Shown piece after piece: positions 50,385-63,606 of a stretch of 63,711 nt of DNA. Both the position numbers and the translations under genes were made by a program. Below the pieces are notes generated by a model. It was not told the origin of the DNA. It saw only the letters and a program-made list of their open reading frames with translations, and made no database searches. The stretch lies in the NCBI GenBank assembly GCA_024330215.1, contig JANDLU010000009.1:1-63711 (forward strand), given 5' to 3'. This DNA comes from Candidatus Gaiellasilicea maunaloa. Its GTDB lineage: Bacteria > Actinomycetota > Thermoleophilia > Gaiellales > Gaiellaceae. Each line of letters opens with the position of its first letter. Positions within the stretch are counted from its first letter, which is position 1.

Positions 50385-50729
50385 TTAGTCGAACTCGTAC
50401 CGAGCCGCGAGCCGCTTCGGGGCCTGGATCAGCCACGCGTCGATCAGGCGCTCACGCACCTCCGTCTCGTCGATGTGCTCGAGCCAGATCAGCAGGAACG
50501 CGGGAGAGCTCTCGAAGTGCGGCGTCAGGCGGTATGCGTCGGGGTTCGACGCGACGAGAAGCGGCCGCTCGTCGCGGTCGCAGCGCGTCCACATCGCGCC
50601 TTCGTGGCGCGTGGTCATCCCGGCGAACGTCTTGCCGCGCACCTTGAAGGCCGGCTTGCCCCACGAGGTCGTCTCCTCGATCTCGGGAAGCTCGCGCGCG
50701 AGCTCCGCTACCCGCTCCCATGTGACCAC
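50385..50729 (-). CDS. MmcQ/YjbR family protein, paralogue 1
   Basis: A 114-residue protein of the MmcQ/YjbR (CyaY-like) fold: WERVAELARELPEIEETTSWGKPAFKVRGKTFAGM, CDRDERPLLVASNPDAYRLTPHF, AFLLIWLEHIDETEVRERLIDAWLIQAPKRLAARYE. Family members are small proteins sometimes labelled DNA-binding, and their role is unknown. GTG 50729 has TAGCCT 6 nt upstream on the minus strand. It is one of three copies within 2.4 kb; the second is a pseudogene and the third is at 52373-52708. Confidence 0.83.
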   Translation of the reverse strand: MVTWERVAELARELPEIEETTSWGKPAFKVRGKTFAGMTTRHEGAMWTRCDRDERPLLVASNPDAYRLTPHFESSPAFLLIWLEHIDETEVRERLIDAWLIQAPKRLAARYEFD

Positions 50730-50900
50730 GAGATGAGGCTAACGCTCTCGGTGTCTCAGCCGCCTGGGGGCGCGCGCGGTCCGGTTGCAACTGGCGGTTG
50801 CCCTCGGTCGCTCGGCGTGAAAGGTTACGCGTCAGCCGACCGTATCGCGGCCGTTAAGACCCGACCGTGCGCTGCTGCGGCTCGACAGAAAGGATCCTCC

Positions 50901-51179
50901 ATGTTCGCGACCATACGCACCTACTCGAGCAACGACCTGGCCGACGCGCTCATCGACAACGAGAGCGAGGTCAAGCGGATCATCAGCGAGATCGACGGCT
51001 TTAAGGCCTACTACCTCGTCCGCACGGCGGACGGCACGGCTTCGATCAGCGTCTACGAGGACGAGGCGGGCACGGAGGAATCGAATCGAGTGGCGGCGGC
51101 GTGGATCGCCGAGAACCTGCCGGACCTCACCGTTGCAAGCCCGCAGATCTCGGCAGGAGAGGTCGTCCTCAGCGCGTAG
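50901..51179 (+). CDS. Small ABM-like hypothetical protein
   Basis: A 92-residue protein reading MFATIRTYSSNDLADALIDN, then IISEIDGFKAYYLVRTADGTASISVYEDEAG. The pattern resembles a ferredoxin-like alpha+beta barrel (antibiotic biosynthesis monooxygenase superfamily) that forms dimers, but no active-site residue was identified. AAAGGATCCTCC precedes ATG 50901. It lies between two MmcQ copies and is oriented against them. Confidence 0.62.
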   Translation: MFATIRTYSSNDLADALIDNESEVKRIISEIDGFKAYYLVRTADGTASISVYEDEAGTEESNRVAAAWIAENLPDLTVASPQISAGEVVLSA

Positions 51180-51202
51180 CAGCCGCATTGCGGTGCGGCG
51201 GT

Positions 51203-51538
51203 CGACGTCGTGCTGAGCCGCGAGCCTCTTCGGCGCCTGGATCGACCAGGCGTCGATCAGCCGCTCGCGCATCCGCCTCGTTGATGTGCTCGAGCCAGAT
51301 CAGGAGGTAGGCGGGCGAGCTCTCGAGTGCGGCGTCAGCCGGTACGCGTCGGGAGTCGACGCGACGAGGAGCGGACGCTCGTCCCGGTCGCAGCGCGTCC
51401 ACATCGCGCCCTCGTGTCGCGTGGTCAGGCCCGCGAACGTCTTGCCGGCCACCTTGAAGACGGTTTTCCCCACGAGGTCGTCTCCTCGACCTCCGGCAAC
51501 TCGCGCGCGAGCTCGGCGACTAGCTCAAACGTGACCAC
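51203..51538 (-). pseudogene. MmcQ/YjbR family paralogue 2, decayed
   Basis: The minus strand encodes, across three frames, a copy very like the gene at 50385-50729: VVTFELVAELARELPEVEETTSWGK, FKVAGKTFAGLTTRHEGAMWTRCDRDERPLLVAS, AYLLIWLEHINEAD, RLIDAWSIQAPKRLAAQHD. Single-base losses near 51460 and 51326, a 2-nt loss near 51270 and a lost stop codon disrupt it. The GTG start and TAACCT box 6 nt upstream survive. Close similarity to copy 1 indicates recent duplication followed by decay, unless the assembly is faulty here. Confidence 0.72.
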
Positions 51539-52376
51539 CACTGGAGGTTACTCCCGCGGAGTCGCTCAGGACTCGCCCGTCACGGGCGGCCAGCTCGGTG
51601 AACGCCTCAACCGCGAGCTCGACGCGGTCGCTGCAGCCGAGCCGGCCGCATTCGCACGCGAACGGATACGACGTCAGCTCTCGCGGCCCTTCGCCCGAGG
51701 CGAGCCAGAGGCGAAGCTGGGTCGCCGTCGCGTCGTTCTCCCAACGCCTGACCGCGGCTCGCTCCGCTTCGCCGAGAAGAGGATGCTCCGGGATCTGCGC
51801 CGCCACGATCTCGGCGACGGCGTCCGCGTCTCCTGCCGGCTCGATATCGATGACTCTATCCCCGCGCAGTGCGGCTGCCGCGCGGATCCGCTCGGCCAGA
51901 AGCGTGTCGCGCGCGAGCCGGTTCTCCCTGGCGCGCTCGGGATCAGAAACCGGAAGCGTGAACGGACGCGTGCCGATCGCGCGCCGCCTGAACTCGGCCG
52001 TCGAGAAGAGGAAGACGGCAGCGGCGCTCGCGGGCAGCAGCTCGGGCAGGACTTGCGGGCCCTCGACGAGCACGGGCGGTTGAGCCGGAAGCTTTGCCAG
52101 GTCTTCCTCCACCAGCGCGAGGCGCTCGCGCGAGATCTCGACGAACCAGTCGACCATCTGCGCAGGCTCCGCGTCCACCCAGCGCTCGTCGAGCGAGCGT
52201 GCGAGAAACCGCTCTTGCGCCGGAGTGCGCCGAGCGGCATGCACCCACGTGAAGCTGTCGATGTGGTATGCGCGAACGCCAAGGCGGCCGGCCAAGATTC
52301 GGGTAACGGTCGACTTGCCCGCGCCGGTTCCGCCGCCGATCCAGAGCGCCCGCGGCCCACCGCCGGCCCGCATCAT
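51525..52376 (-). CDS. P-loop NTPase with C-terminal Cys-rich module
   Basis: A 283-residue protein: Walker A LWIGGGTGAGKSTVTRILAGRLG at residues ~9-31, then YHIDSFTW, VDWFVEISRERLALVEEDL and VLVEGPQVLPELLP, in the style of a small-molecule kinase. The C-terminal 45 residues (FACECGRLGCSDRVELAVEAF) form a short Cys cluster common at protein ends in actinobacteria, perhaps zinc-binding. ATG 52376 overlaps the stop of the upstream MmcQ copy (ATGA), so the two are coupled. The substrate is unknown. Confidence 0.7.
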   Translation of the reverse strand: MMRAGGGPRALWIGGGTGAGKSTVTRILAGRLGVRAYHIDSFTWVHAARRTPAQERFLARSLDERWVDAEPAQMVDWFVEISRERLALVEEDLAKLPAQPPVLVEGPQVLPELLPASAAAVFLFSTAEFRRRAIGTRPFTLPVSDPERARENRLARDTLLAERIRAAAALRGDRVIDIEPAGDADAVAEIVAAQIPEHPLLGEAERAAVRRWENDATATQLRLWLASGEGPRELTSYPFACECGRLGCSDRVELAVEAFTELAARDGRVLSDSAGVTSSGGHV

Positions 52377-52708
52377 CCGAGCGTCGAGGCAAGCTTCGGC
52401 GGCGCAGCGAGCAGCCACGCGTCCTCGATCCGCTCGCGCAGCTCGGCCCGCCGGACCTGCTCGAGGTGAATCAGCAGCATCGGATAGCCCTGATAGTGGG
52501 ACGTGACGAAGTACGCTGCCGGGTTCGACTCGACGAGCAGCGGTCGCTCGTCCGGATCAACGTTCACCACCAGCTTGCCGTGCTCGTGCGGACTCTCCCA
52601 CGCGAACGTCTTCCTGCGCACCTTGAAGGCGAGCTTGCCGTAGGACGTGCTCTCCTCCGTCTCCGGCAGTGCGAGTGCCAGCGCGCGGACGTCCTCCCAG
52701 GTGGCCAC
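52373..52708 (-). CDS. MmcQ/YjbR family protein, paralogue 3
   Basis: A 111-residue MmcQ/YjbR-fold protein: TWEDVRALALALPETEESTSYGKLAFKV, NVDPDERPLLVESNPAAYFVTSHY, LLIHLEQVRRAELRERIEDAWLLAAPPKLAS. It is more diverged than copies 1 and 2. GTG 52708 lies 6 nt from TAGCCT. The gene is divergent from ftsY with only 22 bp between start codons, and the two -10 boxes overlap. The P-loop NTPase gene follows with an ATGA overlap. Confidence 0.82.
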   Translation of the reverse strand: MATWEDVRALALALPETEESTSYGKLAFKVRRKTFAWESPHEHGKLVVNVDPDERPLLVESNPAAYFVTSHYQGYPMLLIHLEQVRRAELRERIEDAWLLAAPPKLASTLG

Positions 52709-53681: not shown

Positions 53682-53683
53682 TT

Positions 53684-53770
53684 CAGCCGCCAGCCGGCCT
53701 GATCGGGTCGTCGGCCTCCGCGAAGCCATGGCGCGCGTAGAACGCGCGACCGTGGCGAGTGCGAATCGTC
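53684..53770 (-). pseudogene. C-terminal remnant of a GNAT acetyltransferase
   Basis: The minus strand encodes IRTRHGRAFYARHGFAEADD, the typical end of a GNAT N-acetyltransferase (RAFYxxHGF), stopping at TGA 53684-53686. Nothing recognisable as the rest of the domain lies upstream, where the ATP-grasp gene ends at 53791. It is read as a leftover fragment. Confidence 0.5.
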
Positions 53771-53790: not shown

Positions 53791-55026
53791 CTAGCTTCTC
53801 GTCTGATCTCGCACCCAGGCGCCGAGTAGCCCGCGGTAGTGCTCCGCGAAGTGCTCGTGCTCGTGCGGCGGGAAGGTCGACCGGACGGTCTCGACGAGCA
53901 GTCGGTCGAAGTCCGTGCCGCCGACGTACTCGTGGAGCGCCTCGTCCAGGCCGGCGAGGTGCTCGGCGCAGAACGCCTCGTACTCCTCGGTCTGGAAGTA
54001 GTCGTCGGCGAGCTTGCCGTAGCCGGTGAGCTTCTCCTGGTAGGTGAGATCGTCGCGGTCGCCGAGGTCGAAGTAATCGCGCGTGCTCTGGTTGATCCGC
54101 ATCGGCCGCCCGGTGACGGCGCAGAAGACGCTCCAGCGGACGAGCGCACGGATCGCCCAGGGGAAGTAGTAGTGGAGACTCGTCAGCGCCACGTCGGGGG
54201 AGGCGTTCGCGTAGTCGATCGGGTAGGCCCGGCCGTCCTTGACGATCGTCTCGCACGAGTTGAACTCCCAGCGGAAGAACGCGTTCACGAGCCGGCTGAT
54301 CGTCACGACCTCGGCGCCGAGCTCCGAGGAGAGGAAGTCGTGGTCGACCCGATAGCGATCGTGGAGCGGCCGGTCGGGATCGAAGTGCATGACCATCGTC
54401 TCGGCGCCGATCGAGAGGCTCCGCGCGAAGACGTCGAAGTCCTCGACCGCCGCCTGCAGGTGCATCAGCCGCTCGCCGGACGCGTCGTAGACTGCGTGCA
54501 GCTCGGCGTCGTCTCGGATCCGCGTGACGCCGACCCACTGACCGCCGTCGAACGGCTTCATGTAGAGCGGATAGCCGACCTTCGCCGCGATCTCGTCCAG
54601 CTCGAACGGCAGGTTGTAGCGCTCCGCGGTGGTCTCGAAGCGCTCGTTCGCGGGCGGGTTCTTGTGCGGGATCAGCCAGGTGTCCGGCACGTGCAGGCCG
54701 AGCCGCATCATTGCGCAGTACGCCGAGTGCTTCTCCATCGCCTGGAAGGTGAACGGGTTGTTCAGGAGGTAGACGTCGTCCATCAGCGAGACCTTCTTCA
54801 GCCACTCGCGCGGGACCGTGTACCACCACCCGAGCCGGTCGATCACGAGCCGGTAGCGCGGCCGCGAGCGGAGGTCGAACGGCTCGTTCGTGATCCGCTC
54901 GGCGACGAGCTCGTGCGTCGCTCCGCCGTAGGAGATCGGGCCGACGGTCCCGAGCAGGTGCTCGAAGGCCGCGGGCCAGTCCTCCTCGGTGCCGAGCAGG
55001 AGCCCGATCGTGTGCGTGCGGGTCAC
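53791..55026 (-). CDS. ATP-grasp ligase, uncharacterised
   Basis: A 411-residue ATP-grasp enzyme, probably forming an amide or related bond through an acyl-phosphate. The N-terminal domain (1-100) starts RTHTIGLLLGTEEDWPAAFEHLL. The nucleotide-binding core has AAKVGYPLYMKPFDGGQWVGV (Lys about 155), RVDHDFLSSELGAEVV, and the metal motif WEFNSCETIVKDGRAYPIDYANASPDVA (about 260-285). It is not a standard D-Ala ligase, RimK or carbamoyl-phosphate type by eye. GTG 55026 overlaps the upstream esterase stop (GTGA). It is sandwiched in an operon with two alpha/beta-hydrolase esterases. Confidence 0.8.
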   Translation of the reverse strand: MTRTHTIGLLLGTEEDWPAAFEHLLGTVGPISYGGATHELVAERITNEPFDLRSRPRYRLVIDRLGWWYTVPREWLKKVSLMDDVYLLNNPFTFQAMEKHSAYCAMMRLGLHVPDTWLIPHKNPPANERFETTAERYNLPFELDEIAAKVGYPLYMKPFDGGQWVGVTRIRDDAELHAVYDASGERLMHLQAAVEDFDVFARSLSIGAETMVMHFDPDRPLHDRYRVDHDFLSSELGAEVVTISRLVNAFFRWEFNSCETIVKDGRAYPIDYANASPDVALTSLHYYFPWAIRALVRWSVFCAVTGRPMRINQSTRDYFDLGDRDDLTYQEKLTGYGKLADDYFQTEEYEAFCAEHLAGLDEALHEYVGGTDFDRLLVETVRSTFPPHEHEHFAEHYRGLLGAWVRDQTRS

Positions 55027-55763
55027 AGGAATCGGGGTAGATGATGCGCGATCTGGGCCCGCCAGGAAGGCCAGTCGTGCGCCACGTCGTGACCCCAGAC
55101 GTCGAGCTCGTGGGGGATCCCTTTCTCGGCGAGTAGACCGGCGAAGCGCCGTGTGCTCTCGAGCGCGCCGGTCGAGTCCTCCCACGCGCCCTGACCGCAG
55201 AGGAGCAGGAGCTTGACGCGGGCGCGCAGCCAGTCGAGCTGCTCGCCGTCGAGCGAGCCGACGTAGTCGGCCGGATTGTTGAAGTAGACGGCGTCGCCGC
55301 GGTCGCCGCCGCCGCCGACGACCGAGACGTCGTAGACGCCGCTCTGGCAGAGCGCGAGCGGGAAGACGTGTGCGTGCTTGAGCGCGAAGTTGGCCGCGTG
55401 GTAGGCGCCGAAGCTGACACCCGTGACGGCGATCTCGGCGCTGTGGGAGTCGGCCTGGATCCACGGGACGACCTGATTCAGGATCCAGTCCTCGTAGAGC
55501 GCGTGCAAGCGGGCGCGCTCCTCGAGCGCCAGGTCCTCGCGGTACCAGCTCCCAGAGTCGAAGCTGTCGACGGCATAGACCTTGAGAAGACCGGCCCCGA
55601 TCTGCCCGGTCAGCGCCTCGACCATCCCGTTCTCCTCGTACTGCCTCGAGTTCCCCTGCTGGGACGGAAACGCGAGCAGCGGCCGGCCGTAGTGGCCGTA
55701 GGCGATCACGCCGCCGTCGGCGCCGATCGCGGGAGACCAGAGTTGGACTTGGCGGCGGTTCAG
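55023..55763 (-). CDS. Alpha/beta-hydrolase esterase (COG4947-like), probable CTG start
   Basis: A 246-residue serine hydrolase. From CTG 55763 it reads MNRRQVQLWSPAIG, then VIAYGHYGRPLLAFPSQQG, the conserved opening of this esterase family. The nucleophile is Ser in VTGVSFGAYHAA (GxSxG) and the catalytic His lies in VWGHDVAHDWPSW. The first standard start, GTG 55709, would remove the conserved LWSPAIG strand, and no ATG/GTG/TTG lies between it and the upstream stop. Its stop overlaps the ATP-grasp start. The upstream esterase ends 1 nt before the CTG. Confidence 0.78.
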   Translation of the reverse strand: MNRRQVQLWSPAIGADGGVIAYGHYGRPLLAFPSQQGNSRQYEENGMVEALTGQIGAGLLKVYAVDSFDSGSWYREDLALEERARLHALYEDWILNQVVPWIQADSHSAEIAVTGVSFGAYHAANFALKHAHVFPLALCQSGVYDVSVVGGGGDRGDAVYFNNPADYVGSLDGEQLDWLRARVKLLLLCGQGAWEDSTGALESTRRFAGLLAEKGIPHELDVWGHDVAHDWPSWRAQIAHHLPRFL

Positions 55764-55764
55764 C

Positions 55765-56802
55765 TCAGGCTCGTTCCAGCAGCCGGAGCAGATGGGGGTG
55801 GAAGGAGTCGCGCCACGCCACCCAGTTGTGCCCGTCGCGGAAGCCGTGGAAGCGCGCGTCGTAGCCCTGCCGCAGCAGCGCCTCGTGCATCGCCTCGTTC
55901 GCGGAAAGGTTGTCCTCGATCGTGCCGCAGGCGATCGTCACGGGAATCGGCCGCTCGGCTCGCCCTGCGAGGACGCTTCCGACGAATCGACCGATCCGGT
56001 CGAACCGCGGAAAGCGGGCCTCGTGCCGGTCGCGGCGGCGAAAGAAGCTCCCCGACTGGAGAAAGAGTGCGTCGAAGGCGTGGGGGTAGCGCCGGTGAGC
56101 GTGGAGGAGCGCAAGCGCGCCGAGGCTCGCACCCATGCCGATCCGGAGCGGGCCGATCCGGAGCGGCCCGCTCTCGAGAGGATCGGCGCCGAAGGAGGGT
56201 AGGAGCTCCTCGGCGAGCGCGCGCGCATATCGGGCCGAGGCAGAGTAGGTCTCGTCGCGGTCGACCGGCGCGATCAGGACGGCGCGGACCGGAGGTAGCT
56301 GTCCGAGCAGCGTCAGGAGCGACGAGTACTCGGCGTACTCCGGCCCGTCGTGGGCGACGAGGAGCGGACTGTGCTTGCCCGCATCGGGATGAGCCCAGAG
56401 GAGGGCCGGGAGCTCGGTGCGGAGGATCCGGCTCTGGAGGACGACGCTCTCGGCGGCACCGAGCGGCTTGGCGTCGAGCCACGCGGGGGCTTCGTAACCC
56501 GGCAGCTCGCGCACCGACTTGTCGCCCCACGGCCCCGAGGCGCGGAGCGGGTTCTCCGGGTCGACGATCCGCTCGGAACGGCCCGTCCGATCGATCAGCT
56601 CGAACTGGTACTCGAGCCGGTCGACCTCCGGCTGTGGGGCGACGAGCTCCCAGGTGTCGCCGCGCCGCGTGAGCCTGTGGGGCAGACCGGGGACGTCGTG
56701 CGCAAGCTGGACGCGCGCAAGGCGTGGCCCGCGCTCACGGTAGGCGAACCGGACCTCGGGCCCTGGGAGTGCCCCGGGGAGCGGATCGAGAGCGGCCCTC
56801 AT
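55765..56802 (-). CDS. Enterochelin-esterase-like hydrolase with N-terminal beta-sandwich domain
   Basis: A 345-residue esterase of the PF00756 type. The N-terminal ~110 residues (VRFAYRERGPRLARVQL, LEYQFELIDRTGRSERIVDPENPLRA) look like the isoamylase-N-like beta sandwich of Fes/IroD enzymes. The catalytic domain has LLVAHDGPEYAEY, nucleophile GMGASLGALALLHAH (GxSxG) and His in FRDGHNWVAWRDSF. No signal peptide is seen. It heads the three-gene minus-strand operon. Ferric-siderophore hydrolysis is possible by family, but no siderophore genes are near. Confidence 0.82.
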   Translation of the reverse strand: MRAALDPLPGALPGPEVRFAYRERGPRLARVQLAHDVPGLPHRLTRRGDTWELVAPQPEVDRLEYQFELIDRTGRSERIVDPENPLRASGPWGDKSVRELPGYEAPAWLDAKPLGAAESVVLQSRILRTELPALLWAHPDAGKHSPLLVAHDGPEYAEYSSLLTLLGQLPPVRAVLIAPVDRDETYSASARYARALAEELLPSFGADPLESGPLRIGPLRIGMGASLGALALLHAHRRYPHAFDALFLQSGSFFRRRDRHEARFPRFDRIGRFVGSVLAGRAERPIPVTIACGTIEDNLSANEAMHEALLRQGYDARFHGFRDGHNWVAWRDSFHPHLLRLLERA

Positions 56803-56908: not shown

Positions 56909-56970
56909 ACTGGTGAGCGTGCCCGAGCCCGGCTATGCAGGCTGCTCTGGCAATCACCAAAGGAGGATCG

Positions 56971-58011
56971 ATGATCAGACCAACCAGCCGAAGGCTCGTC
57001 CGCGCGCTCGTCGCAGCGGGGCTCGCACTCGGGCTCGTGACCACCGTCGCGGCTGCCCCACGCAACGGCAGCTCCACCGAGGCAACGATAGCGGCCTGCC
57101 GCAACGAGGTATCCGGTCTCCTGCGCGTCCCGACTGGCCACGCGTCCTGCCGTCAGGGCGAGCAGCCGCTCGCCTGGAACGTCGGCGGCCCACGCGGGCC
57201 CCGTGGCGAGGCGGGTCCCCAGGGCGTTGCAGGCCCCCAGGGCTCGGCCGGTTCGGCCGGCGAGCGAGGTCCCGCCGGCGAGCAGGGGGCGGCAGGTCCG
57301 GCAGGCGACGTCGGACCGGCCGGACCGCAGGGCGTTGCCGGTCCCGCAGGCCCGCCCGGAGCCGGACTCGCATCGATCGACCAGTTGAACGGGATCGCCT
57401 GCACGACGGCAGCGGGGAACGCCGGCAGCGTCAGCGTGACCGTCGCCGCGGCCGGCGCGATCTCGTTCGCCTGCGACGCAGGCACGCCGCCGCCTCCGCC
57501 GCCTCCGCCTCCCCCGGCAGGGCGCTCGATCGTGGTCAACGAGATCGACTACGACCAGGTCGGCGCCGACAGCGGTGGCTTCGTCGAGCTGCGCAACAAC
57601 GGCACGGCCGCCGCGGATCTGACGGGCCTCGCGCTCGTCCTCGTCGACGGCTCGGACGGGCTCGAGTACGACCGCGAGGCGCTGACGGGCGAGCTCGCCG
57701 CAGGCGGCTACCTCGCCGTCGCGGTCGAGGCGCAGAACGGCGCTCCGGACGGCGTCGCGCTCGTCGACACCGCCACGGGCGCGGTGCTCGACGCGCTCTC
57801 CTACGAAGGGGCGATCACGGCCGCGCAAATCGGAACGGCGACCGTGAGCCTCGTCGAGGGAACGGTCCTGGCGGCGACGGTCGCGGACTCGAATGCAGTC
57901 GCGGGGTCGCTGATCCGGAACCCGGACGGCAAGGACACGAACGACGCCGCCTCGGACTGGGCGTTCACGACGACGGTGACGCGGGGAGCCGCGAACGTCG
58001 CGAGCGGCTAG
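56971..58011 (+). CDS. Secreted collagen-like protein with C-terminal lamin-tail domain
   Basis: A 346-residue exported protein. Signal peptide (residues 1-30, [22 protein letters not shown]), a small Cys-containing segment ([15 protein letters not shown]), then about 20 uninterrupted Gly-X-Y triplets ([16 protein letters not shown]...), a linker, a 10-Pro run and a C-terminal lamin-tail domain ([25 protein letters not shown]). AAAGGAGGATCG precedes ATG 56971. A triple-helical stalk carrying an adhesive head on the cell surface is a reasonable guess. A similar lamin-tail domain occurs in the nuclease at 59456. Confidence 0.8.
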
Positions 58012-58053
58012 ACGAGTGACTGCGGGGGCGCCGGCGAGGGCGCCCCCGCACTC

Positions 58054-59130
58054 TCAGCGATGCCCCTTCAGGCGCATGTTCGCGCGGGCCTCGGCGCCGA
58101 CCTTGGCCCAACGCTTGCGCTCGTCGGCCTGCGCTCGCTTGTCCAGCCGACGCTCGAGGTGGGCAAGCTCCCGCTGCAGCTTCTGATAGCTCGCCCAGCG
58201 ACCCTGCTCGAGCGTTCCGTCCGCGAGCGCCGCCTGGACTGCGCAACCGGGCTCGGTGCGGTGAGCGCAGTCGTTGAAGCGGCAGTGCGCCGCGAGCTCC
58301 TCGATGTCCGAGAAGGTCTCGCTGAGCCCATCGGCCGACTCCCAGAGCTGGAGCTCCCGCATCCCGGGCGTGTCGAGGACGAGCCCGCCCCCGGGCAGCG
58401 GTACGAGCTGGCGGTGGGTCGTCGTGTGCCGGCCCTCGCCGTCCGACTCCCGGATCTCCTTGACCGCCAGGAGCTCCTCCCCGAGGAGCGTGTTCACGAG
58501 CGTCGACTTGCCGACGCCGGAGGAGCCGAGCAGAGCGATCGTCTTCCCCGGCTCGATGTACGAGCGGACGACGTCCAGGCCGTCCCCCGTGAGGCTCGAG
58601 ATCGCGTGCACCGGGACGCCGAACGCGATCGCCTCGACCTCGACCACCCGCAGCTCCACGTCCGGGCAGAGATCGGTCTTCGTCAGGACGATCACGGGCT
58701 TGGCACCACTCTCCCAGGCGAGGGTGAGATACCGCTCGAGGCGACGCAGGTTGAGATCCTCGTTCAACGAGCTGAGGAGGAAGACGGTGTCGACGTTTGC
58801 GGCGACGACCTGCTCCTCGGTAGCCGACCAGGCGACCTTGCGCGAGAAGGCCGTGCGCCGGGGCAGGACGGCCTGGATCGTCCCGGCCTGCTCCGCCGGG
58901 CGGAGCGCGACTGCAACCCAGTCGCCGACGGCTGGCAGGTCGCCGAAGCCGCTCGCCTCGTACGAGAGCCGGCCGGCGGGCTCGGCCCGGATCTCGCCGT
59001 CCTCGGTGAGGACGACGTAGGCGCCGCGATGCTGCTCCGACACCCGTCCGAGCGCGAGGCCCGCGGCGGCGTGCGGTTCGAAGTCGGTCGTGTGACCGTC
59101 AGTCCAGCCGAGATCTTGCAATGTGGTCAA
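58054..59130 (-). CDS. rsgA: Ribosome small-subunit GTPase RsgA
   Basis: A circularly permuted GTPase that checks 30S maturation. The 358-residue protein has an OB fold (about 20-95), then G4 VLTKTDLC, G1 LLGSSGVGKSTLVNTLLG, G2 HTTTHRQLVPLPGG and G3 LVLDTPGMRELQLW, in permuted order, and a zinc domain CRFNDCAHRTEPGC. TTG 59130 is preferred because GAGGAGAG lies 5 nt upstream; an ATG at 59172 would add 14 residues with no homology. It is divergent from the secreted nuclease gene. Confidence 0.93.
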   Translation of the reverse strand: MTTLQDLGWTDGHTTDFEPHAAAGLALGRVSEQHRGAYVVLTEDGEIRAEPAGRLSYEASGFGDLPAVGDWVAVALRPAEQAGTIQAVLPRRTAFSRKVAWSATEEQVVAANVDTVFLLSSLNEDLNLRRLERYLTLAWESGAKPVIVLTKTDLCPDVELRVVEVEAIAFGVPVHAISSLTGDGLDVVRSYIEPGKTIALLGSSGVGKSTLVNTLLGEELLAVKEIRESDGEGRHTTTHRQLVPLPGGGLVLDTPGMRELQLWESADGLSETFSDIEELAAHCRFNDCAHRTEPGCAVQAALADGTLEQGRWASYQKLQRELAHLERRLDKRAQADERKRWAKVGAEARANMRLKGHR

Positions 59131-59357
59131 GCGAGCTCTCCTCGAGCGAAGGGATAGGTGCGACGGGGGCACGCTGCTGCGCGCTGCGCCGTGGCTCGAG
59201 GAGCCGCCGAGGGTGTGACCGACGGCGCCTAGAGCCGCGGGACTCTGGAGGCGGTGGAAGCAAGCTCGTTCATCTGTCGCACCTCCTAGGTCTCATGGCT
59301 CGGCTCGTCGGGACGTCTCGAAGTATGCCTGCGGGCGGTAAGGAAGTCGAGAGCGGG

Positions 59358-59455: not shown

Positions 59456-61843
59456 GTGTCTCAACTTCGACTGCGGCTGCTCGTGGCCGTTGCAGCGCTT
59501 GTCGCCCTCGCGGGTGCCGGGAACGCTCTTGCAGCCGGCGGCGTCGTCATCAGCCAGGTCTACGGAGGCGGCGGCAACAGCGGCGCCACGCTGACGAACG
59601 ACTACATCGAGCTCTACAACGGGGGGACGACGAGCGTCGACCTCTCTACCTGGTCTGTGCAGTACGCCTCGAGCGCCGGTTTCTCGTGGCAGCGGACGAA
59701 CCTGTCGGGCTCGTTGCCGCCGGGCAAGCACTACCTCGTCCAGGAGGCCGCCGGTGCGGGCGGAACGACGCCGCTTCCCAGCCCGGACGCGACCGGCTCG
59801 ATCGCGATGAGCGGCACGAGCGGCAAGGTCGCCCTGGTCACCGACCAGACGTCGCTCGTGTGCGGTCAGACGCTGAACAACTGCTTCCCGAATGCCGCGA
59901 TTCGCGACTTCGTCGGCTATGGCTCCTCGGCGAACAACTTCGAAGGAGCAGGCCCGACCGGCACGCTGAGCAACACGACCGCCGCGCTCCGAAAGGACGA
60001 CGGCCTCCAGGACACCGACTCGAACGATCTCGACTTCGAGGTAGGCCAGCCGAACCCCCGCAACCTCGGCGGCACCACGCCTCCCGTCGCGGTTCCCGTG
60101 CGCATCGCACAGATCCAGGGCGCAGCGCATCGTTCGCCGCTCCTCGACCAGCAAGTCGCCACGCAGGGCGTCGTCACGGCTGAACGGCTGAACGGCTTCT
60201 GGATCCAGGACGCAGCTCCGGATGACGACGAGCGGACGTCCGAGGGCATCTTCGTCTTCGGGTCGCCCGCCGGGGTCGCTCCTGGGGACGCCGTCGGCAT
60301 CACGGCGACGGTCAGCGAGTTCCGGCCGGGCGGAGCCAACTCCACCGGCCTCTCGATCACGCAGCTCGGCTCGGCCACGGTGACTCCGGGTGGCCCCGGC
60401 GCAGCCATTCCGACGACGGTGATCGGAGCCGGCGGCCGCGTTCCGCCCACGGCGATCATCGACAACGACACGAATGGGGACGTCGAGACGGGCCCGACGA
60501 CGTTCGATCCGGCCGAGGACGGGATCGACTTCTACGAGAGCCTCGAGGGGATGATCGTCCAGGTGAACGATGCCGCGGTCGTCGGTCCGACCAAATCGTT
60601 CGGCGAGATCTCGGTGCTTCCGGATCACGGCGCCGCCTCGGCGCTGCGCACACCGCGCGGCGGAGTGCTCGTCCGCCCAGCGGACTTCAACCCGGATCGG
60701 ATCCAGGTCGACGACGAGATCCTGCGTGACGCGATCGTTCCCCGCCCGGCCAAGGCGATGCCGGACCTGAACGTGGGAGCCTCGATCACGAACGCGATCG
60801 TCGGCCCGATCGACTACAGCTTCTCGAACTTCAAGCTGCAGGCGACGACGACGCCGACGTTCGACCCAGGGCCGCTGACGCCGGAGGTGACAGCTCGGCC
60901 TCGTCATCAGGAGCTGTCGGTCGCGACCTTCAACGTCGAGAACCTCGACCCGAGCGACGTCGACCTGATCCCGCGGCTCGCCGCCCAGATCGTCGACAAC
61001 CTTCGCGCTCCCGATCTGATCGGAGTCGAGGAGGTCCAGGACAACACGGGCTCCACCAACGACGGCATCGTCGACGCGTCCCAGTCGTGGGCGGCCCTGA
61101 TCGCCGCGATCCAGGTCGCCGGCGGCCCGCTCTACGAGTACCGGCAGATCGATCCGCTCGACAACGTGGACGGCGGTCAGCCCGGCGGCAACATCCGTGT
61201 CGGCCTCCTCTTCCGGACCGACCGTGGCCTCAGCTTCGTCGATCGACCGGGCGGGGACTCGGTGACGGCGGTGGCGGTCGTCGACCAGCCGTCGGGAGCA
61301 CAGCTCTCGATCAGCCCCGGCCGGATCGATCCAGCCGACCCCGGTTTCCTCGACACGCGGAAGTCCCTCGCGGGCGAGTTTCGCTTCCGCGGTAGGAAGC
61401 TGTTCGTCGTCGTCAACCACTTCAGCTCCAAGGGCGACGACCAGCCGCTCTATGGCCGCTTCCAGCCGCCGACCCGCTTCAGCGAGATCGCGCGGCGTCA
61501 GCAGGCCCAGGTCGTGAACGACTTCGTCGACGACGTCCTCGCGGTCGACCACCGCGCGAACGTCGTCGTGCTCGGGGACATCAACGACTTCGAGTTCTCG
61601 GAGACGATCGACATCCTCGAAGGCGGCGTGATGACGACGCTGATGAAGACGCTCGCGCCGGCGGAGCGCTACTCGTATGTCTTCGAAGGAAACTCGCAGA
61701 CGCTCGACCAGATCCTGGTCGGCAACAGTCTGCTCGGCCGCGTCCGCGCCTACGACGTGGTGCACGTCAACGCCGAGTTCGCCGACCAGGCCTCCGACCA
61801 CGATCCATCCGTGGCCCGCCTCGATCTGACGGGTCGGCGGTAG
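59456..61843 (+). CDS. Secreted endonuclease/exonuclease/phosphatase-family nuclease with lamin-tail domain
   Basis: A 795-residue extracellular nuclease of the ExeM/YhcR type. Signal peptide (1-26), lamin-tail domain (about 27-190, VVISQVYGGGGNSG ... DYIELYNGG), an OB-fold segment (about 210-400, QVATQGVVTAERLNGFWIQD) and a C-terminal EEP domain with catalytic landmarks VATFNVENL, LIGVEEVQDN, VNHFSSKGD, LGDINDFEFS and SDHDPSVA. It would degrade DNA or RNA outside the cell and is followed by a secreted 5'-nucleotidase. GTG 59456 follows AGGGAGGATTTTTC. Confidence 0.88.
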   Translation: MSQLRLRLLVAVAALVALAGAGNALAAGGVVISQVYGGGGNSGATLTNDYIELYNGGTTSVDLSTWSVQYASSAGFSWQRTNLSGSLPPGKHYLVQEAAGAGGTTPLPSPDATGSIAMSGTSGKVALVTDQTSLVCGQTLNNCFPNAAIRDFVGYGSSANNFEGAGPTGTLSNTTAALRKDDGLQDTDSNDLDFEVGQPNPRNLGGTTPPVAVPVRIAQIQGAAHRSPLLDQQVATQGVVTAERLNGFWIQDAAPDDDERTSEGIFVFGSPAGVAPGDAVGITATVSEFRPGGANSTGLSITQLGSATVTPGGPGAAIPTTVIGAGGRVPPTAIIDNDTNGDVETGPTTFDPAEDGIDFYESLEGMIVQVNDAAVVGPTKSFGEISVLPDHGAASALRTPRGGVLVRPADFNPDRIQVDDEILRDAIVPRPAKAMPDLNVGASITNAIVGPIDYSFSNFKLQATTTPTFDPGPLTPEVTARPRHQELSVATFNVENLDPSDVDLIPRLAAQIVDNLRAPDLIGVEEVQDNTGSTNDGIVDASQSWAALIAAIQVAGGPLYEYRQIDPLDNVDGGQPGGNIRVGLLFRTDRGLSFVDRPGGDSVTAVAVVDQPSGAQLSISPGRIDPADPGFLDTRKSLAGEFRFRGRKLFVVVNHFSSKGDDQPLYGRFQPPTRFSEIARRQQAQVVNDFVDDVLAVDHRANVVVLGDINDFEFSETIDILEGGVMTTLMKTLAPAERYSYVFEGNSQTLDQILVGNSLLGRVRAYDVVHVNAEFADQASDHDPSVARLDLTGRR

Positions 61844-61923
61844 TTCCGACCTCTGGCCGGCGTCGCTTCTGCGGCGCCGGCCCGTGTCATTCACCTGTGA
61901 CATTCAATCTGGGAGACGAAAAG

Positions 61924-63606
61924 ATGACGAAACGAGCTACACGTCTTGCGGTCGCGATTCTCGCGCTCATGTTGCTCACAGTCCCTGCGGCGGCGGCTCG
62001 GACGGATGCCAAGACGACCTCACCGGTCACGATCCAGTTGCTCAGCATCTCGGACTGGCACGGGCAGATCGACCCGATCTCGGTGTCGGGAGTCGGGAAC
62101 GTCGGTGGTGCGGCAGTGCTCTCGTCGTACTTCAAGGCGGATCGCGCGGCCAACCCGAACACGCTCACGCTGACTGCGGGCGACGCGTTCGGTGCTTCAC
62201 CGCCGATCTCGAACTTCTTCGAGGAAGAGCCGGCGGTGAGGTCGATGAACCTGATGGGCTTCGATGCCGACACCCTCGGTAACCACAACTTCGACCGCGG
62301 CATCGCGCACCTCCAGCGGATGATCGACCTCGCCGACTTCTCGTACGTGTCGGCGAATCTCGCACACGTCGAGGACAACCTCCGCGGGGTCGCGCCATTC
62401 GCGATCTTCGAGCGGGCAGGCGTCAAGATCGCCGTCGTCGGGATCACGAACCCGGAGGCGCCGACACTCGTCTTCCCCGGTAGCTTCGGCACGATCCAGG
62501 TCACAGATCCGGTCGCTGCGGCCAACAAGGCACGGAAGGCGGCGAAGAAGGCAGGCGCGAACATCTTCGTCGCGATCGCGCATCTCGGCGCGACGGGAAC
62601 GGATCCGGCTACGGGGGAGCCGACCGGCCCGCTCCTCGACTTCGCCAAGCAGGTCAAGGGCTTCGACGTCATCCTCGGCGACCATACGGACGTCGCAGTG
62701 AACACCGTCGTCGATCACACGCTCGTGGTCGAGAACCGCAGCAAGGGCGTGACATATGCGCGGACGACACTCGTCTTCGACCCGCACCAGAAGCGTACGA
62801 TCGAACGGTCGGCCGAGTTCGTCACCCCGCTCTCCTCGGCGGTGACGCCGGATCCGGCGATCGAGGCGATGCTGCAGCCCTACCGCGACCAGCTCGCGCC
62901 GATCTTCGGCACGCAACTCGGCGTCTCGACTGTCGAGGTCCCGCGTAGCGACGCCTGCGGCAACAGCGCGGGCCGTACCTGCGAGTCGAAGGTCGGCAAC
63001 GTCGTCACCGACGCGCTTCGCGCGACGTACGGAACCGACTTCGCGATCACGAACTCGGGTGGTCTGCGGGCCAGTCTGACGTGTCCGACGACCGATATCG
63101 CGACGGACTTCTGTCCGTCGTTCGTCCCGCCGCCGTTCCCGATCACCCGCGGTCAGGTGAACACAGTGCTTCCCTTCGGGAACGTGGCCGTGACGCTGAC
63201 GGTGAACGGAGCGGAGCTGAAGACGATGCTCGAGAACGGCGTGTCCAAGATGCCGGCCGTCGACGGTCGCTTCGCTCAGGTCTCCGGCCTCTGCTTCACG
63301 TACGACATCTCGGCCGTAGCCGGGAGCCGGGTGACCGGCGCCGTCAGGCAGGCGGTGGATGGAAGCTGCACGGGCACGGCGGTCGATCTGACGGCCGCGT
63401 CGAGCTACACCCTCTCGGAGAACGACTTCATGGCCGCGGGCGGTGACGGCTATCCGGTCTTCTCGAGCCGGGTCACGACCCGCGACATCATGGATCAGGC
63501 GGTTGCGAACTACGTGCAGTCGGCGGGAACGTTGAGCCCGTCGATCCAGGGCCGTGTCAACTGCACGAGCTCGGGTGCGACGGCCTGCCCGACGGTCACC
63601 CCGTAG
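61924..63606 (+). CDS. Secreted 5'-nucleotidase / cyclic phosphodiesterase (UshA-like)
   Basis: It hydrolyses extracellular nucleotides to nucleosides and phosphate. The 560-residue precursor has a signal peptide (MTKRATRLAVAILALMLLTV...), the metallophosphatase domain with SISDWHGQID, LTAGDAFGASPP, TLGNHNFDRG, IAHLGA and GDHTD (two-metal site; GNHNFD is GNHEFD in most relatives), and the C-terminal substrate domain with AITNSGGLRASL, NTVLPFGN and ENDFMAAGGDGYPVF. ATG 61924 has GGGAG upstream. A strong terminator follows. Confidence 0.9.
   Translation: MTKRATRLAVAILALMLLTVPAAAARTDAKTTSPVTIQLLSISDWHGQIDPISVSGVGNVGGAAVLSSYFKADRAANPNTLTLTAGDAFGASPPISNFFEEEPAVRSMNLMGFDADTLGNHNFDRGIAHLQRMIDLADFSYVSANLAHVEDNLRGVAPFAIFERAGVKIAVVGITNPEAPTLVFPGSFGTIQVTDPVAAANKARKAAKKAGANIFVAIAHLGATGTDPATGEPTGPLLDFAKQVKGFDVILGDHTDVAVNTVVDHTLVVENRSKGVTYARTTLVFDPHQKRTIERSAEFVTPLSSAVTPDPAIEAMLQPYRDQLAPIFGTQLGVSTVEVPRSDACGNSAGRTCESKVGNVVTDALRATYGTDFAITNSGGLRASLTCPTTDIATDFCPSFVPPPFPITRGQVNTVLPFGNVAVTLTVNGAELKTMLENGVSKMPAVDGRFAQVSGLCFTYDISAVAGSRVTGAVRQAVDGSCTGTAVDLTAASSYTLSENDFMAAGGDGYPVFSSRVTTRDIMDQAVANYVQSAGTLSPSIQGRVNCTSSGATACPTVTP

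What the first reader, a model, noticed from the sequence alone, without database searches (positions are those of the whole stretch)
53791..56802. Esterase - ATP-grasp ligase - esterase operon of unknown product
Three coupled minus-strand genes: an enterochelin-esterase-like hydrolase, a second alpha/beta hydrolase (COG4947-like), and an ATP-grasp ligase that fits no common subfamily by eye. One ligase sandwiched with two serine hydrolases and overlapping start/stop codons suggests a pathway that makes and trims or transfers an ester- or amide-linked metabolite. No NRPS, siderophore or transporter gene is adjacent. A GNAT remnant lies at its downstream end. This is the best candidate here for an undescribed biosynthetic module.
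Basis: partly seen in the sequence, partly recalled or inferred. Interest (0 to 1): 0.62.

Follow-up and report, generated by a model that had tools for sequence, protein, structure and literature searches.

The report
Conserved ATP-grasp ligase and two-hydrolase operon
Three overlapping genes, one that makes amide-type bonds and two that probably break or move acyl bonds, form an operon kept intact across many soil actinobacteria, so they probably make and process one small molecule that nobody has yet identified.

Summary
On the minus strand lie a Fes-like hydrolase (55765-56802), a COG4947-like hydrolase (55023-55763) and an ATP-grasp ligase (53791-55026), coupled end to end. It is not a chance grouping. 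At least 48 distinct loci keep the same order, and across 296 genomes of the phylum the three genes are found together (24, 25 and 20 genomes; 20 hold all three), even when unlinked. No Pfam or NCBIfam model reaches its cut-off. The predicted structure (pLDDT 90.6) is a RimK/LysX-type ATP-grasp core plus an extra helical C-terminal domain. One correction: the ligase is the last gene, not sandwiched. Wider context adds GCS2 carboxylate-amine ligases (27 of 81 loci, about 100-fold over background), a second ATP-grasp family that pairs with COG4947-like hydrolases in Bacillota and Alphaproteobacteria, and S51 and M20 peptidases. Best reading: a cytoplasmic amidoligase-hydrolase module that builds and trims or recycles a small peptide-like metabolite. 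The chemistry is inferred and the product unknown. It is a new variant of a known kind (amidoligase gene clusters), of moderate interest.

The parts
55765..56802 (-). Gene A: enterochelin-esterase-like alpha/beta hydrolase (345 aa), Ser226-Glu296-His325 predicted triad, no signal peptide by eye
   Evidence: PF00756 1.5e-5; profile hits enterochelin esterase 2b20 at 3e-20 with Ser, Glu and His motifs aligned; invariant S226, E296, H325 in 29 orthologues
55023..55763 (-). Gene B: COG4947-like alpha/beta hydrolase (246 aa) starting at CTG 55763 by homology, Ser118-Glu196-His230 predicted triad (P0002 numbering)
Evidence: PF00756 1.3e-9; AF2 pLDDT 94.9; nearest folds are CE1 esterases, S-formylglutathione hydrolase and antigen 85, Z 22-24; invariant residues; start comparison.
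53791..55026 (-). Gene C: ATP-grasp ligase (411 aa, GTG start overlapping the stop of B), RimK-like core 1-305 plus helical C-terminal domain 306-410
   Evidence: AF2 pLDDT 90.6; RimK 5zk6 Z 22.0 over 263 residues; no family over cut-off; 404 relatives among the candidate stretches in genome contigs; invariant K98, K156, E258, D270, N273
53683..53763 (-). Possible GNAT C-terminal remnant, 26 codons ending in a stop, in frame after gene C; not part of the conserved module
   Evidence: translation; family not testable at this length

Best explanation
The operon encodes a cytoplasmic amidoligase-hydrolase module. Gene C activates a carboxylate as an acyl phosphate with ATP and joins it to an amine, as RimK- and LysX-type ATP-grasp enzymes do; the carboxylate or amine partner is probably an amino acid or the product of a GCS2 carboxylate-amine ligase encoded nearby in relatives (three unlinked GCS2 matches in this genome). 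Genes A and B are serine hydrolases of the PF00756/CE1 fold with Ser-Glu-His triads that act on the same compound: they cleave a protecting or carrier acyl group, or trim or recycle the conjugate. Shown: the genes, overlaps, fold, conservation of catalytic positions, co-inheritance and the association with other amidoligases and peptidases. Inferred: bond type, order of steps, shared substrate and direction (synthesis versus salvage).
For: Same-order triad in 48 distinct loci, 22 of them with a 4-nt overlap between A and B that begins with ATG, GTG or TTG. Phyletic patterns nearly identical in 296 genomes, including genomes where the genes are unlinked (e.g. G042, G086). The ligase model is a confident ATP-grasp fold closest to RimK, ArgX and LysX, and the presumed ATP and Mg positions are invariant. 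Both hydrolases keep a Ser-Glu-His set. GCS2 ligases of two subfamilies sit near gene C in 27 of 81 loci, in co-directional, convergent and divergent arrangements, against 56 GCS2 matches in 60 whole genomes. A distant homologue of C (30% identity, hhalign 5e-27) lies in operons with a circularly permuted ATP-grasp and GCS2, with a C4947 gene upstream or beside it. A second ATP-grasp family adjoins C4947 homologues in Peptoclostridium and Pararhizobium, and in actinobacteria forms clusters with an S51 peptidase, Fes, C4947 and M20 peptidase.
Against: No substrate, product or phenotype is known. ATP-grasp folds also include kinases (PPIP5K2 and ITPK1 reach Z about 18) and ester- or thioester-forming ligases, so amide formation is not proved. 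Nonomuraea and the sampled Dormibacterota keep gene C without adjacent hydrolases, so it can act with other partners or with unlinked ones. The trees of gene C and the hydrolases agree only partly (distance correlation 0.43-0.51, half of the splits shared).
Confidence: 0.5

Rival explanations
1. Salvage or catabolic module: the two hydrolases open an imported ester- or amide-linked compound in the cytoplasm and the ATP-grasp enzyme re-ligates or conjugates a released acid so that it can be used or detoxified.
For: Both hydrolases have esterase folds, gene A being closest to enterochelin esterase; the C4947/ATP-grasp pair in Peptoclostridium lies among amino-acid permease and histidine-degradation genes; two hydrolases to one ligase.
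Against: No uptake system recurs beside the module; the recurring partners are ligases (GCS2, ATP-grasp) and peptidases.
Confidence: 0.2
2. Siderophore pathway: gene A is a true Fes/IroE enzyme releasing iron from a catecholate ester and gene C builds the siderophore amide.
For: Gene A matches enterochelin esterase 2b20 at 3e-20 with triad motifs aligned.
Against: Matches to the enterochelin esterase model are far below cut-off (61.5 against 222 bits); no siderophore synthase, receptor or iron-transport family among the 25 commonest families of 116 neighbours.
Confidence: 0.05
3. Glutathione-like thiol pathway: GCS2 joins glutamate and cysteine, gene C adds a third residue, and the hydrolases, which resemble S-formylglutathione hydrolase, cleave S-acyl adducts of the thiol.
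For: GCS2 association; gene B ties with S-formylglutathione hydrolases by fold, Z about 24; four DinB-superfamily neighbours, a fold used by bacillithiol and mycothiol transferases (the last point is my own knowledge).
Against: The same Z is reached by feruloyl esterases and nearly so by antigen 85; the GCS2 near most loci matches EgtA only marginally (2.8e-4); many carriers are mycothiol producers (my own knowledge).
Confidence: 0.08
4. Protein modification: gene C ligates an amino acid or peptide to a protein, as RimK does to ribosomal protein S6, and the hydrolases remove the tag.
For: RimK, LysX and ArgX, which act on proteins, are the closest folds; protein peptide-tagging is predicted for other ATP-grasp clades (PMC4431377).
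Against: No small carrier protein such as LysW was seen beside the genes; the hydrolases have esterase rather than typical protease folds; fold similarity does not fix the acceptor.
Confidence: 0.12

Closest known systems
RimK / LysX / ArgX ATP-grasp ligases
   Same: Closest fold to gene C (Z 19-22 over about 260 residues); ATP-grasp core with invariant Lys, Glu, Asp and Asn
   Different: 13-17% identity; Pfam RimK not matched; extra helical C-terminal domain of about 105 residues; no S6 or LysW partner seen
D-Ala-D-Ala ligase family
   Same: Main named family with weak sequence similarity, confined to the ATP-binding segment
   Different: Far below all cut-offs; the similarity covers mainly about 40-95 residues; remaining domains show no sequence match
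Enterochelin esterase Fes (PRK10439; PDB 2b20)
   Same: Gene A aligns over residues 65-336 of its profile with Ser, Glu and His motifs kept
   Different: About a quarter of the curated score; no siderophore context
Amidoligase gene clusters (ATP-grasp with GCS2 and peptidases; Iyer et al. 2009, cited in PMC4431377)
   Same: Linked unrelated ligases plus hydrolases; GCS2 and circularly permuted ATP-grasp found with relatives here
   Different: The Fes - C4947 - ATP-grasp triad was not found described in the open papers searched; the 2009 paper itself is not held, so this could not be checked there

Membership tests
RimK family | Sequence match over family cut-off (TIGR00768, PF08443) | tested here: not met
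   TIGR00768 12.8 bits against 143.4; PF08443 not reported for gene C
RimK family | RimK-like fold of the ATP-grasp core | tested here: met
   Z 22.0, rmsd 2.5 over 263 residues to 5zk6
RimK family | Glutamate ligation to a protein C-terminus | not testable with these tools
   needs an enzyme assay
D-Ala-D-Ala ligase | Score over family cut-off | tested here: not met
   PF07478 14.3 against 24 bits; NCBIfam 17.5 against 457 bits
Enterochelin esterase (PRK10439) | Score over equivalog cut-off | tested here: not met
   61.5 against 222 bits
Enterochelin esterase (PRK10439) | Siderophore gene context | tested here: not met
   no siderophore or iron family among the commonest families of 116 neighbours
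PF00756 esterase superfamily | Score over gathering cut-off with Ser nucleophile and His | tested here: met
   A 25.3 and B 38.6 against 22 bits; invariant Ser and His
ATP-grasp superfamily | Fold and ATP/Mg-binding residues | tested here: met
Amidoligase-peptidase gene clusters | Recurrent linkage of distinct ligases with hydrolases or peptidases | tested here: met
   (in relatives; in the window itself only one ligase)
PADLOC defence systems | Any model match | tested here: not met
   no match at E 0.01

The most novel reading that the evidence does not exclude
The module, together with GCS2 and the second ATP-grasp family, is the core of an unrecognised glutathione-like or gamma-glutamyl small-molecule system used by many soil actinobacteria, with dedicated hydrolases that recycle its acyl conjugates.
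Probability: 0.1. Interest if true: 0.8.

Novelty: new variant of a known kind. Interest (0 to 1): 0.47.

Why it matters
Gene C belongs to a well-conserved ligase family (62-73% identity to the window across most sampled actinobacterial, Dormibacterota and Chloroflexi loci) that no Pfam or NCBIfam model names, with two hydrolases inherited alongside it and with links to other amidoligases and peptidases. That makes it a defined, testable target: the partners, catalytic residues and cultured hosts (Solirubrobacter, Actinophytocola, Kibdelosporangium) are in hand, and a metabolite comparison of knockouts could reveal a new class of actinobacterial small molecule.

Tried and rejected
Direct match of gene C in plasmids gave nothing. 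Anti-phage defence: no PADLOC match. Assembly contamination: tetranucleotide profile and G+C of the window fit the rest of the genome, although only 7 of 149 genomes of the class sample (all in its own family) carry the gene. A single shared ATP-grasp family in all C4947 pairs: rejected, the Pararhizobium and Peptoclostridium ligase is a different family. Literature searches for COG4947, for ATP-grasp with esterase or amidoligase, and for GCS2 with S51 found no description of this module. Promoter and terminator scan uninformative.

Full report
What is there. The window is contig C179 of a 3.85 Mb genome, 97% complete. Three minus-strand genes lie at 56802-53791. Gene A is a 345-residue hydrolase of the Pfam esterase family, nearest to enterochelin esterase. 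Gene B is a 246-residue hydrolase of the same superfamily. Gene C is a 411-residue ATP-grasp protein. C starts with a GTG that overlaps the stop codon of B. B starts, by homology, with CTG one base after the stop of A; relatives have ATG, GTG or TTG there, most often in a 4-nt overlap (22 of 48 loci). The order is hydrolase, hydrolase, ligase, so the ligase is last, not in the middle.

The ligase. No Pfam or NCBIfam model reaches its cut-off; the best are D-Ala ligase fragments around residues 140-180. A structure model from 48 homologues has pLDDT 90.6. Its first 305 residues match RimK (Z 22.0), ArgX and LysX, but purine-pathway ATP-grasp enzymes and inositol phosphate kinases follow at Z 18-19, so the fold alone does not fix the chemistry. 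Residues 306-410 are helical and lie outside the RimK match. Residues expected for ATP and magnesium binding (K98, K156, E258, D270, N273) are invariant (the assignment of roles is inference).

The hydrolases. The profile of A aligns with enterochelin esterase 2b20 with the Ser, Glu and His motifs in register. B folds like feruloyl esterases, S-formylglutathione hydrolase and antigen 85 (model pLDDT 94.9), with invariant Ser118, Glu196 and His230. Neither shows a signal peptide by eye, so both are probably cytoplasmic.

Is it a unit? A scan of 84,980 species genomes gave 404 confirmed relatives of C, of which the best 80 were fetched. Over all loci fetched, 48 distinct ones carry A, B and C in the same order and strand. 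On a tree of C from 81 proteins, 51 have a hydrolase next to the ligase, and the state changes only 9 times (shuffled mean 24). In 296 genomes of the phylum, C is in 24 (E below 1e-20, with fragments), B in 25 and A in 20 (E below 1e-75); all 20 with A have B and C. In G042 and G086 the genes are split over different contigs yet all present. Tree distances of A, B and C correlate more strongly than in any of 500 permutations (0.43-0.86), though the topologies agree only in part.

Wider network. A GCS2-type carboxylate-amine ligase lies near C in 27 of 81 loci. Two distant GCS2 subfamilies are involved, in co-directional, convergent and divergent arrangements. Sixty whole genomes hold only 56 GCS2 matches, about 0.3 per Mb by my estimate from the listed genome sizes, so about 0.26 would be expected in the 789 kb of flanks. 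Shared ancestry means the 27 are not independent. Twelve loci also carry a second ATP-grasp family, often in threes. In actinobacterial clusters (L152, L154, L156) this family is followed by an S51 peptidase, a Fes-like gene, a C4947-like gene and in one case an M20 peptidase. The same second family is the immediate neighbour of C4947 homologues in Peptoclostridium and Pararhizobium. A shorter homologue of C (30% identity, hhalign 5e-27) sits in operons with a circularly permuted ATP-grasp and a GCS2 enzyme, with C4947 upstream in one case and convergent beside it in the other. Outside these families, 116 neighbours show no siderophore, NRPS or uptake enrichment.

How it probably works. Linked amidoligases commonly carry out successive ligations in peptide-derived metabolites (PMC4431377, citing Iyer et al. 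2009). The best reading is that C forms an amide bond on an amino acid or a GCS2 product, and A and B cleave, transfer or recycle the acyl part. Rivals kept open are a salvage module, protein tagging, a glutathione-like thiol and, least likely, a siderophore pathway.

Novelty. The kind, amidoligase clusters with hydrolases, is known. I found no description of this triad or of ligase family C in the open papers searched, but the main 2009 survey is not held. I therefore call it a new variant of a known kind.

Noticed in passing
window 55761-55763: Apparent CTG start codon of gene B where 27 of the 48 compared loci show ATG, GTG or TTG at the aligned position (16, 8 and 3); non-canonical start or point change.
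   Followed up: partly
window 56935-59172: RsgA GTPase gene (58054-59172, minus) precedes the operon as in several relatives (L004-L007), but here a collagen-repeat plus lamin-tail-domain gene (56935-58011, plus) sits between them.
   Followed up: partly
window 59456-63606: Two tandem genes: lamin-tail plus endonuclease/exonuclease/phosphatase protein, then a 5'-nucleotidase; looks like an extracellular nucleic-acid or phosphate scavenging pair.
   Followed up: no
window 50385-52708: Two YjbR-family genes (50385-50729 and 52373-52708) flank a P-loop protein of 297 aa without any Pfam match.
   Followed up: no
L151 7845-11247; L158 6501-10594: Operon of a short ATP-grasp homologue, a circularly permuted ATP-grasp and a GCS2 ligase, with C4947 beside it.
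   Followed up: partly
L152, L154, L156, L157: Clusters with up to three second-family ATP-grasp genes plus an S51 (cyanophycinase-like) peptidase, Fes-like and C4947-like hydrolases, and M20 peptidase.
   Followed up: partly
L068 8247-9041 and other Nonomuraea loci: Gene C next to a DUF2252 protein and near a protein resembling D-cycloserine synthetase DcsG (4e-64, below cut-off).
   Followed up: no
L030 7304-8845: GCS2-like family of about 490 aa that matches Pfam GCS2 only weakly (7e-8) yet recurs beside gene C in 19 loci; possibly an unnamed amidoligase family.
   Followed up: partly
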